From an uncultured Bacteroidales bacterium (GTDB lineage: Bacteria; Bacteroidota; Bacteroidia; Bacteroidales; Bacteroidaceae): 64,000 bases of DNA. Position 1 is the first letter of the stretch; each line of letters opens with the position of its first letter. The stretch covers positions 1 through 64,000 of the forward strand of contig CAMAMB010000005.1 in assembly GCA_945836755.1 (NCBI GenBank), in the 5' to 3' direction. The position numbers and the translations under genes are program-made. The notes below the pieces were generated by a model that made no database searches, was not told the DNA's origin, and saw nothing but the letters and a program-made list of their open reading frames with translations. Of the stretch, positions 55,455 to 58,627 are shown piece by piece.

Positions 55455-55660
55455 TTATAATTCGGCGAGTTGACATTCTCCTGTATGGGTGTTGACGCTT
55501 AGTATATAATGGAATTGAGTGCCATCTTTATCGGTTACATCAACTCGAACTGTCCACACACTTGAAGATTTGTCTTGTACGGAGAATGTGATGCGGGCGT
55601 TTGTGGTGATGGTTTCGGGTAGGTCTGTGGCGTGCTCCATTCCGTTGCAATTGCTTTCTC
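55455..55660 (-). pseudogene. 3' part of small host gene interrupted by the TIR element
   Basis: ATDLPETITTNARITFSVQDKSSSVWTVRVDVTDKDGTQFHYILSVNTHTGECQLAEL; 5' part lies beyond the element at about 58231-58345. Confidence 0.55.
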
Positions 55661-55690
55661 AGTAATTTGTTAGGGTGTTCAAAATAGGCA

Positions 55691-56102
55691 GTTTCACTTC
55701 TGCTGTGTATCGGGACTTGAAGGCTTTGAGGCGTGCATCCACAGCCTTCAGTCCACTGCCAACTTTATCGCTGGCAGTGACATCGCCCAAGGTTACACGG
55801 AGCTCAACACCACACCGCACACTCGAAGAGTGAAGACGGTGTTCTTTGCCATGCGTCACGCTCTTGATGATATGGAAGCACGTCAGGAGTGCATGGATAT
55901 CATGCGTGAGCTGTTCCGTCAGTTTATGTCGGTACTCATACAAGAGAAACCGAGAGTCGAAGAAGAACATATCTACCTCGACCCTCGTATCTCATTCCAA
56001 GAAATAGACCGCCATTTCCTTTCAGGCTGCGCCTGTGCCTTCTTCCAAGTGGCTACGGACGTTTACACCGACCTACGCTACAATCAGGAAGAGTGGGATT
56101 AG
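55691..56102 (+). pseudogene. C-terminal fragment of an unidentified larger protein inside the element
   Basis: Open frame ...GLEGFEACIHSLQSTANFIAGSDIAQGYTELNTTPHTRRVKTVFFAMRHALDDMEARQECMDIMRELFRQFMSVLIQEKPRVEEEHIYLDPRISFQEIDRHFLSGCACAFFQVATDVYTDLRYNQEEWD; no clear start. Confidence 0.5.
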
Positions 56103-56115
56103 AATATGGTGCTTC

Positions 56116-57051
56116 TTATTTAACTGCAGCTGGCATTAAAGAAATTATATCGTTAATTTCATTCTCCCAATGAGGATTCTCTACCATGATCTCTTGAGAA
56201 ACATTATTGAAATCTGTCTGAATTTGCGTTATTCTCATAGACAATGTATCTATTTCATCTTCTATTTTGTTCAACATGTTCGTGTCCTTAGATACTTTAC
56301 TTGGTATCATTTTCTTTGATAGTATTTCATATATGGAACCACCAACTATTAAACCTGTCAAGAGGCTTACACCAATAAATACATTTTCGTTTTGACTGAA
56401 GTTACTTATTATATGATAACAAATTAGGTAAACAATTACAAAAACAAGAAATGTTAAACATCCATTTGTTGTTTTCGTATTCTCTATCTCACTTTTTACT
56501 TTCTTATCATATTCACTATTGATTTTATCTATTTCCTTTTTCTTTTCTGAAATACTTTCTTTTATTTTTGTTAATTCTTCCTCTACTACTGAAGGTTTAT
56601 AACGAGACCATACGGATTTGTTGAAGGTATCTGAAAGTTTGTTTGTAGAAGCATCTTCTATTTGACGTAGAATATTCATGGCATATTCTTTGTCCTGGAT
56701 TTCATCAAGATTATCCATTGCTTCTTTTGAATATGTCAACATTGGTTTAATGAAAAGATTCATCACAAAAGTACGGAAATTTTCATTCTCCTGTTCTGTA
56801 ATTCTCTTTAATGCCAATCCCATATTAAAAATAAGGGATTTATAATATCTTTGCTTTTCTTGTCTTTCAAGTTCTTTAAGTTGATTCCGAAGAATTTTAT
56901 TTGTTGCAGCAGTGTTAGCAGACATTTCCTTCTTTAACTTCGAAATCTCTTCACACTGTGCATATTGAGCAATTAATTGCTGTTTGCTAAATGCACCAAT
57001 TTTTTCAAGAGTATAGGTTTGATATATACTCAGAGCTGTTTTTGTATCCAT
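56116..57051 (-). CDS. Two-TM coiled-coil protein of unknown function (element cargo)
   Basis: Long charged helices (KIKESISEKKKEIDKINSEYDKKVKSEIE), TM LTFLVFVIVYLICYHII and VFIGVSLLTGLIVGGSIYEIL; low GC. Confidence 0.85.
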   Translation of the reverse strand: MDTKTALSIYQTYTLEKIGAFSKQQLIAQYAQCEEISKLKKEMSANTAATNKILRNQLKELERQEKQRYYKSLIFNMGLALKRITEQENENFRTFVMNLFIKPMLTYSKEAMDNLDEIQDKEYAMNILRQIEDASTNKLSDTFNKSVWSRYKPSVVEEELTKIKESISEKKKEIDKINSEYDKKVKSEIENTKTTNGCLTFLVFVIVYLICYHIISNFSQNENVFIGVSLLTGLIVGGSIYEILSKKMIPSKVSKDTNMLNKIEDEIDTLSMRITQIQTDFNNVSQEIMVENPHWENEINDIISLMPAAVK

Positions 57052-57055
57052 TATC

Positions 57056-57727
57056 TTATATTACTATTATCTGTGCATTATGGTCACTCATATTCCTTTC
57101 CCATCCGCCTATCATATAGGCAAAGAGGGGAATATTCGTGAATGTGAAATCAATGAAGAAAGGCATATCATCCTTAAACTGGTGATGATATGTGCAAGAG
57201 GTTTCCTTGCCAAATTCCTCATGGGTGCGCTCGTGGTATTCACTCCGCAACCCAAGTTCGTGCATGTATTCAATACATTGCTCGAAGGTTCCTGTCTGGT
57301 TGCTTACTCCTCCCTGTCCGATGTAGCAGTTGAAGTCACCTGTTATCATCGTTGGCATCTCTTTGATATGCCCAGAGTAAGCCTTCAGACATTCCAACAG
57401 AATTTGGGGATAGGTCTTCTTTATTCCTGGCACTATCGTAGGCCATGCTGCAAGAAGAAGCCATTTGCCATCGACAATCAGAGGAATCATGTACTTATGC
57501 TCGGCGTCAGCCCATGGCGCGACTGAGCATTTTAACGTATTCTTCCAGATAACTCCTAATCCTTTGAAGTCTGTATCACCTGCCCAAGTCATTTCATAGC
57601 CATCGGGCAGGCAGACTTGATCCGGACATGCACATTCTGGCAAGACCATAATGTCCGTGCCTCTCTTCAGGATGGAGTCTATCTTCTCCTGATTGCAACG
57701 ATGGATGTTGTAGGCCAGTATCTTCAT
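57056..57727 (-). CDS. Endonuclease/exonuclease/phosphatase (EEP) family protein (element cargo)
   Basis: LAYNIHR, VLPECA, TGDFNCYIG, MSDHNAQI catalytic motifs retained; 4-nt gap to next gene. Confidence 0.87.
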   Translation of the reverse strand: MKILAYNIHRCNQEKIDSILKRGTDIMVLPECACPDQVCLPDGYEMTWAGDTDFKGLGVIWKNTLKCSVAPWADAEHKYMIPLIVDGKWLLLAAWPTIVPGIKKTYPQILLECLKAYSGHIKEMPTMITGDFNCYIGQGGVSNQTGTFEQCIEYMHELGLRSEYHERTHEEFGKETSCTYHHQFKDDMPFFIDFTFTNIPLFAYMIGGWERNMSDHNAQIIVI

Positions 57728-57757
57728 GTCTGTTGATAAATGCCAATTTCACATCAG

Positions 57758-57765
57758 CAAAGTTA
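57758..57765 (-). promoter_or_regulatory. -7 box TAACTTTG (minus strand) upstream of the EEP cargo gene
   Basis: CAAAGTTA on plus strand, about 30 bp upstream of ATG. Confidence 0.6.
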
Positions 57766-58230
57766 CAAATTTCTTTGCATATTCTCGGCTTGACTAACAA
57801 TCTTATATGATTATTTATCCAAAATCAGCACATTATGCTGTCGTCAGGCAATGAAGGCAGCAGAAACCTGGAATCCACATTCTTGACTATCTAAATCGAG
57901 AAATCTCCTTCATGGATAAGAAAGAGTCGCATAACGCAAGTTCGGATACCATAGGGTCGACATTTGGAGTTACCAAAGCAAGGAAGTCTAATGACAAGCT
58001 GGCTGGAGTTACGCCTATCATACTCATGATGCCGTTGCGTCATTATTTTGCTGATAAATCCAGACGAGTTAATTTCAATTTCAAAGAACGTTTGGAGGAA
58101 GGCAGGCATCGTCGTATTAAAGAATGGACAGATGTAGCCTTTCTCCGAATCTAGGAGTCAAAAGACGTGAAACCATTGGCAAAAAATGCGTAGATTTTTG
58201 ATGCCTATTTTGAACACCCTAGTAATTTGT

Positions 58231-58345
58231 TTACAGGAAGTGTTGAGGCCGACTCGCCCGTCTTTCGTTTCCATTGATAGCCGTATGAATTTGTCGTAGG
58301 CAATGGGATACACGTTGTCTGTGGGAACTGAATTATCACTTCTTG
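58231..58345 (-). pseudogene. 5' part of host gene interrupted by the element
   Basis: Minus-strand frame DNSVPTDNVYPIAYDKFIRLSMETKDGRVGLNTSCKQIT; -7 box TATATTTG (CAAATATA, 58346-58353) just upstream. Confidence 0.4.
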
Positions 58346-58527: not shown

Positions 58528-58583
58528 GAAGCATCCCCGTTAAAACTGGAAGCATTCCCGTTAAAACTGGAAGCATCCCCGTT
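58528..58583. repeat. 21-bp tandem repeat GAAGCAT[C/T]CCCGTTAAAACTG, ~2.7 copies
   Basis: Direct reading; related to hairpin at 14128-14165. Confidence 0.9.
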
Positions 58584-58627
58584 GTCAGTAGATGCCTGTC
58601 GGTGGGGTGGGGTGTGTAGGGCCGGGT

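What the first reader, a model, noticed from the sequence alone, without database searches (positions are those of the whole stretch)
55661..58231. Cargo-carrying TIR/TSD element with no recognisable transposase
AGGGTGTTCAAAATAGGCA at 55672-55690 is mirrored exactly at 58202-58220, and AGTAATTTGTT is directly duplicated immediately outside both ends (55661-55671, 58221-58231). The 2.55-kb interior is visibly AT-richer than its surroundings and holds a two-gene operon but no full-length transposase ORF. An 11-bp duplication is in the range reported for IS4-type elements, so it may be mobilised in trans. The family assignment is inference.
Basis: partly seen in the sequence, partly recalled or inferred. 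Interest (0 to 1): 0.85.

Follow-up and report, generated by a model that had tools for sequence, protein, structure and literature searches.

The report
IS-bounded cassette carrying prophage genes
A 2.55-kb piece of DNA jumped as one unit into a gene of a gut Prevotellamassilia-type bacterium: it has the two ends and a broken tail of a jumping-gene family that sequence databases leave unnamed, and its middle is a stretch of prophage DNA with two intact genes, one a predicted nuclease.

Summary
Comparison with other elements sharing these ends gives perfect 20-bp inverted repeats (TAGGGTGTTCAAAATAGGCA) and a 9-bp target duplication (GTAATTTGT).

The family is not IS4. It is a Mutator/hAT-type DDE group (D, D, DxxH, E; 9-bp duplications; 1.5-1.7 kb) present in Bacteroidota and cyanobacteria. 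No Pfam or NCBIfam model names it above cut-off, and plasmid records call its members 'hypothetical protein'.

The interior is probably contiguous prophage DNA: a 5'-truncated prophage gene, a coiled-coil/membrane gene, an AP-endonuclease-fold (EEP) gene, and the leader of the next prophage gene. The element interrupts a host gene whose homologues in two same-genus genomes are uninterrupted.

Best reading: a non-autonomous, cargo-carrying IS derivative (mobile insertion cassette, MIC) moved in trans. It is a new variant of a known kind. The cargo's function is inferred (phage-conflict accessory genes), and no autonomous copy was found in this incomplete MAG.

The parts
55662..55670 (+). 9-bp target-site duplication, left copy GTAATTTGT
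   Evidence: identical to 58222-58230; 9-bp length shared by other family members
55671..55690 (+). left terminal inverted repeat, 20 bp TAGGGTGTTCAAAATAGGCA
55691..56102 (+). 3' part of a prophage gene (about 165 aa protein, 'gene C'), 5'-truncated at the TIR
   Evidence: 81% nt identity to a 47-kb viral contig from 55692 onward (L148); 66 viral-contig relatives; frame read
56116..57051 (-). gene A, 311 aa, intact, coiled-coil with a hydrophobic segment; no family match above cut-off
57056..57727 (-). EEP gene, 223 aa, intact endonuclease/exonuclease/phosphatase fold; N7, E31, GD131xN133, D193, S214-D215-H216 conserved
   Evidence: alignment; model pLDDT 86.6; LINE-1 endonuclease / APE1 fold matches, best E 1.8e-10
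57758..57765 (-). TAACTTTG, fits the Bacteroidota -7 promoter motif TAnnTTTG upstream of the EEP gene; the same 8-mer lies upstream of the EEP gene of G029
   Evidence: sequence; motif from general knowledge, not tested
57811..57842 (+). 32 bp matching the leader of the next prophage gene ('gene D') in same-genus genome G032; right edge of the prophage-derived segment
   Evidence: 97% identity over 32 bp
57838..58221 (+). 3' end of an IS: transposase C-terminal remnant plus right end; frameshifted, catalytic Glu replaced by Gly
   Evidence: 72% nt identity to the IS of G310, ending at the IS tip; profile hit E 8e-31
57912..58154 (+). longest open frame within the transposase remnant, 80 aa
58202..58221 (-). 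right terminal inverted repeat, 20 bp, perfect complement of the left
58222..58230 (+). 9-bp target-site duplication, right copy GTAATTTGT
58222..58331 (-). interrupted host gene, part upstream (in its own sense) of the insertion
   Evidence: homologous to uninterrupted genes in G354 and G008
55455..55670 (-). interrupted host gene, C-terminal part
   Evidence: joined flanks also carry a separate frameshift

Best explanation
This is a non-autonomous, cargo-carrying IS derivative (a mobile insertion cassette) that transposed as a 2551-bp unit into a host gene, making a 9-bp duplication. SHOWN: perfect 20-bp ends shared with an IS family, the 9-bp duplication, the 3' end of that family's transposase gene inside the right end, prophage DNA in the interior, and a target gene uninterrupted in relatives. 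INFERRED: a family transposase acting in trans paired the two 20-bp ends and moved everything between them. INFERRED: the cassette probably began as two same-family insertions (or an IS plus a MITE) in a prophage, one in prophage gene C and one just before gene D, bracketing gene A and the EEP gene; internal deletions then removed all of the left copy except its 20-bp end and the first two thirds of the right copy's transposase. INFERRED: the cargo was a prophage accessory (moron) pair, probably acting in phage-phage or phage-host conflict through the EEP nuclease.
For: Ends and duplication. Same ends on a 1633-bp element with a nearly full transposase gene (L040, G124 = Prevotellamassilia timonensis), on MITEs of 281-373 bp in the same genome, and at the end of a 446-aa transposase gene in a Colimorpha MAG. 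Transposase remnant at the right end. Prophage origin: viral-contig relatives of gene C, 81% nt match from just inside the TIR, gene D leader at the right edge, and a viral contig with both gene C and an EEP gene (L150). Uninterrupted target homologues. Intact cargo frames beside a decayed transposase.
Against: No intact transposase of the family and no second copy of the element were found in this genome, although it is an 85%-complete MAG in 94 contigs. No nucleotide-level empty site exists in the set searched; the empty-site evidence is protein homology at about 26-33% identity. Transposition as a chimera is not directly observed: an intact IS could have landed first and had its interior replaced later. 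The right-edge prophage link rests on 32 bp in one genome.
Confidence: 0.78

Rival explanations
1. In-situ replacement: an intact IS of this family inserted in the host gene and made the duplication; later, illegitimate recombination swapped a prophage segment for the left two thirds of the IS. The chimera itself never moved.
For: The right 384 bp is ordinary IS 3' sequence; the duplication would look the same; only one copy exists.
Against: Needs a double illegitimate exchange whose left breakpoint falls right at the inner edge of the 20-bp end (prophage homology starts at 55692). The two ends are identical 20/20 although the adjoining transposase DNA has decayed.
Confidence: 0.17
2. IS4-type element with an 11-bp duplication.
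For: AGTAATTTGTT flanks both sides; IS4 members can have long duplications (general knowledge).
Against: Family members share 9 bp and a 5'-T. No match to IS4-type DDE domains. N-S-E-K instead of Y-R-E-K around the catalytic Glu. Significant fold matches are Hermes and ISCth4 only, both helical-insert DDE enzymes.
Confidence: 0.02
3. Chance or regulatory dyad, or assembly artefact.
For: Single copy in a fragmented MAG.
Against: 0.02 matches expected and 2 found; the same ends bound independent elements with their own duplications in other genomes; the element lies inside a 75-kb contig and host-gene homology continues on both sides.
Confidence: 0.02

Closest known systems
Mobile insertion cassettes (MICs), e.g. 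those linked to qnrD in Proteeae (PMC3913671, title and abstract seen only); MICs are also mentioned in an IS4-family survey (PMC2266710, not read in full)
   Same: IS-type ends and target duplication around non-transposase genes, no working transposase
   Different: Ends belong to a different, unnamed IS group; retains a transposase fragment; cargo is a prophage segment
Prokaryotic Mutator-like transposase elements (p-MULT: IS256, ISH6, ISLre2/TnGBS, ISKra4/ISAzba1/ISMich2), PMC3942029
   Same: DDE with a D(2)H motif 19 residues after the second Asp, helical insert, 9-bp duplications
   Different: No Pfam Transposase_mut match; NCBIfam ISH6 match far below cut-off; longer gap from second Asp to Glu; profile comparison with IS256 gives only 7% probability
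Composite transposons
   Same: Cargo between two copies of related ends, moved as one unit
   Different: Only 20 bp of one end and about a quarter of the other IS remain
Prophage moron / accessory loci
   Same: Opposite-strand genes between prophage genes, own promoter-like sequence, variable partner gene
   Different: Here detached from the prophage and carried between IS ends

Membership tests
Mobile insertion cassette (MIC) | Bounded by inverted IS ends | tested here: met
   perfect 20-bp TIRs shared with IS members
Mobile insertion cassette (MIC) | Flanking target duplication | tested here: met
   9 bp, 0 mismatches
Mobile insertion cassette (MIC) | Non-transposase cargo and no functional transposase | tested here: met
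   two intact non-transposase genes; frameshifted remnant lacking about two thirds of the protein and the catalytic Glu
Mobile insertion cassette (MIC) | Moves in trans with an autonomous relative | not testable with these tools
   relatives with full transposase genes exist in other genomes but not in this MAG
Transporter IS (tIS) | Own functional transposase plus passenger genes | tested here: not met
IS4 family | IS4-type DDE domain with YREK motif | tested here: not met
   no such Pfam hit; N362, S365, E369, K376 at the YREK spacing
IS4 family | 11-bp duplication | tested here: not met
   family duplication is 9 bp
p-MULT / Mutator-like DDE transposases | C/D(2)H motif 11-19 residues after second Asp (PMC3942029) | tested here: met
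   D183 then D202xxH205; D183, D202 and H205 invariant across ten homologues from two phyla
p-MULT / Mutator-like DDE transposases | 8- or 9-bp direct repeats | tested here: met
p-MULT / Mutator-like DDE transposases | RNase H fold with helical insert of 99-138 aa between second Asp and Glu | tested here: inconclusive
   helical insert predicted, but second Asp to Glu spans 186 residues; model pLDDT 68
p-MULT / Mutator-like DDE transposases | Sequence homology to a named p-MULT family | tested here: inconclusive
   ISH6 E 0.0025 at 16.6 bits against cut-off 240; hhalign to IS256 7% probability
IS256 family | Transposase_mut domain (PF00872) | tested here: not met
   no PF00872 match in the nine transposases of alignment A1
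EEP superfamily nuclease (cargo) | Conserved catalytic residues and fold | tested here: met

The most novel reading that the evidence does not exclude
The ends belong to an undescribed, cross-phylum family of Mutator/hAT-type insertion sequences (TIR TAGnnTGT..., 9-bp duplications, transposase with D-D-DxxH-E) that databases carry as hypothetical proteins, and which can pick up prophage accessory genes and move them into the chromosome as transposase-less cassettes.
Probability: 0.45. Interest if true: 0.65.

Novelty: new variant of a known kind. Interest (0 to 1): 0.5.

Why it matters
It shows a likely route by which prophage accessory genes can leave the phage and become independently mobile chromosomal cassettes, and it exposes an IS group across at least Bacteroidota and Cyanobacteriota that the standard annotation models used here do not name, so its insertions and cassettes are overlooked. 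The EEP gene with swapped partner genes (coiled-coil membrane, GIY-YIG, DUF6642) next to the same prophage gene in three genomes of one genus is a candidate phage-conflict locus that can be tested.

Tried and rejected
I first guessed from memory that the left fragment was DUF6261; Pfam gave no match and viral-contig relatives showed it to be a prophage gene. Second TIR copies in the own genome: none. Exact TIR in IMG/VR: none. Transposase relatives in IMG/VR: none. Cargo against PADLOC: none. EEP in IMG/VR by peptide patterns and in the INPHARED phage set: none, although one viral contig fetched for gene C does carry an EEP gene. Nucleotide-level empty site in 58 same-genus genomes: none. Solved-structure sequence search with the transposase profile: nothing meaningful. 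The ISKra4 profile comparison used wrongly chosen frames and is disregarded; the IS256 comparison there stands. TIR fragments as literature search terms returned only unrelated papers among those listed. The exact TIR hits in Pseudoalteromonas and Aquimarina (L015, L016) were single ends and were not followed up.

Full report
OBSERVATION. The inverted repeat and the flanking direct repeat are present at the stated coordinates. Allowing three mismatches, the 19-mer occurs twice in the window against 0.02 expected and twice in the 2.25-Mb MAG. The boundary needed other copies. In L040 (1633 bp), L041 (373 bp), L045 (281 bp), L069 and L070 (1633 bp each), all in genome G124, and in L060 (1643 bp, G285), the ends begin TAGGG and the duplication is 9 bp with no mismatch; L042 (310 bp) has one mismatch. 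L069, L070 and L060 share the TAGGGTGT tip but diverge further in. The L013 record and the G124 coordinates coincide, so G124 is Prevotellamassilia timonensis, of the same genus as the window's genome.

ANATOMY. The right 384 bp (57838-58221) aligns at 72% nucleotide identity with the 3' end of an IS in G310, and the alignment stops at the last base of the right end. Translated, it is the C-terminus of the transposase with a frameshift and with Gly in place of the catalytic Glu. The left end keeps only the 20-bp TIR; from 55692 the DNA is 81% identical to a prophage gene in a 47-kb viral contig (L148). That gene (about 165 aa, here 'gene C') has 66 relatives in viral contigs, where in several contigs it is followed by a second conserved gene of about 142 aa ('gene D'). 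A 32-bp stretch at 57811-57842 matches the leader of gene D in G032. Prophage DNA therefore probably runs from gene C to just before gene D, and gene A and the EEP gene sat between them on the opposite strand.

CARGO. Gene B (57056-57727) is an EEP-superfamily nuclease with the conserved Asn, Glu, GDxN and SDH positions, and its model matches LINE-1 endonuclease and AP endonucleases. Gene A (56116-57051) is a coiled-coil protein with a hydrophobic stretch and no family match above cut-off. In two other genomes of the genus the same EEP gene (87% and 95% nt) lies beside the same 3' end of gene C, but the gene between them differs: a GIY-YIG protein in G029 and a DUF6642 protein in G030. Similarity to the window is limited to the EEP gene (in G029 to within a few bases of its start and stop) and to the end of gene C. 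This swapping of partners, and the EEP gene near gene C in viral contig L150, fits a prophage accessory locus. That it acts in phage conflict is inference.

TARGET. The two flanks belong to one gene: joined, they align with uninterrupted genes of about 323 aa in G354 and G008 across the insertion point, at about 33% and 26-29% identity. This is an empty site at protein level only; no nucleotide match to the joined flanks was found in 58 same-genus genomes. The joined window gene also contains a separate frameshift.

THE IS FAMILY. Transposase relatives occur in 12 of 301 genomes of the taxonomic family, counting the window's own remnant and, with a profile, in two of 399 genomes drawn across the phylum, again counting that remnant. 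Distant homologues on Persicobacter, Nostoc, Calothrix and Gloeothece plasmids are 22-28% identical. Where a gene is annotated there it is called hypothetical protein. Of these, L200, L202, L203 and L204 are bounded by TAGnnTGT ends and perfect 9-bp duplications, as is L197 in G710 (1546 bp). D116, D183, D202, H205 and E369 are invariant in ten sequences from two phyla. The predicted model has moderate confidence (pLDDT 68) and its significant matches are Hermes (hAT) and ISCth4 (IS256) only. Guerillot et al. (PMC3942029) describe the same motif spacing and 8-9 bp repeats for Mutator-like transposases. No Pfam or NCBIfam model reaches its cut-off. ISfinder was not available, so 'undescribed' is not proven.

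MECHANISM. Most likely a transposase of this family, supplied in trans, paired the two 20-bp ends and moved the whole 2551 bp into the host gene, with 9-bp staggered joining giving the duplication. The cassette probably formed from two insertions bracketing the accessory genes of a prophage, followed by internal deletions. The alternative, replacement of the interior of an IS already in place, cannot be excluded, but it needs a breakpoint right at the inner edge of a 20-bp end whose two copies remain identical.

VERDICT. A real, well-bounded, cargo-carrying IS derivative; not IS4; a new variant of a known kind (MIC-like). The wider, unannotated IS family is the more interesting part.

Noticed in passing
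L200, L202, L203, L204, L197: Distant homologues of the transposase in Persicobacter, cyanobacteria and another Bacteroidales genome, annotated hypothetical protein where annotation exists, form 1.5-1.7 kb elements with TAGnnTGT ends and 9-bp duplications.
   Followed up: partly
L010:3839-5514 and L011:1577-2868: Same EEP gene and same prophage-gene 3' end as the window, but with a different gene in between (GIY-YIG protein; DUF6642 protein), suggesting partner swapping.
   Followed up: partly
L041:1340-1712, L042:1050-1359, L045:3190-3470: MITEs of 281-373 bp with the same ends in Prevotellamassilia timonensis; their duplications (CCTTTCAGG, CCTTACAGG, CCTAATAGG) look like a palindromic target preference that the window's target does not share.
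   Followed up: no
L150:2355-3863: Viral contig with a uracil-DNA-glycosylase-like gene (identified by eye) directly followed by an EEP gene.
   Followed up: no
58528-58590: Three tandem 21-nt copies of GAAGCATCCCCGTTAAAACTG (100, 95 and 76%) in the intergenic region right of the element.
   Followed up: no
55455-55670 and 58222-58331: The interrupted host gene carries an additional frameshift beyond the insertion, so it may have been decaying already (or this is a MAG error).
   Followed up: no
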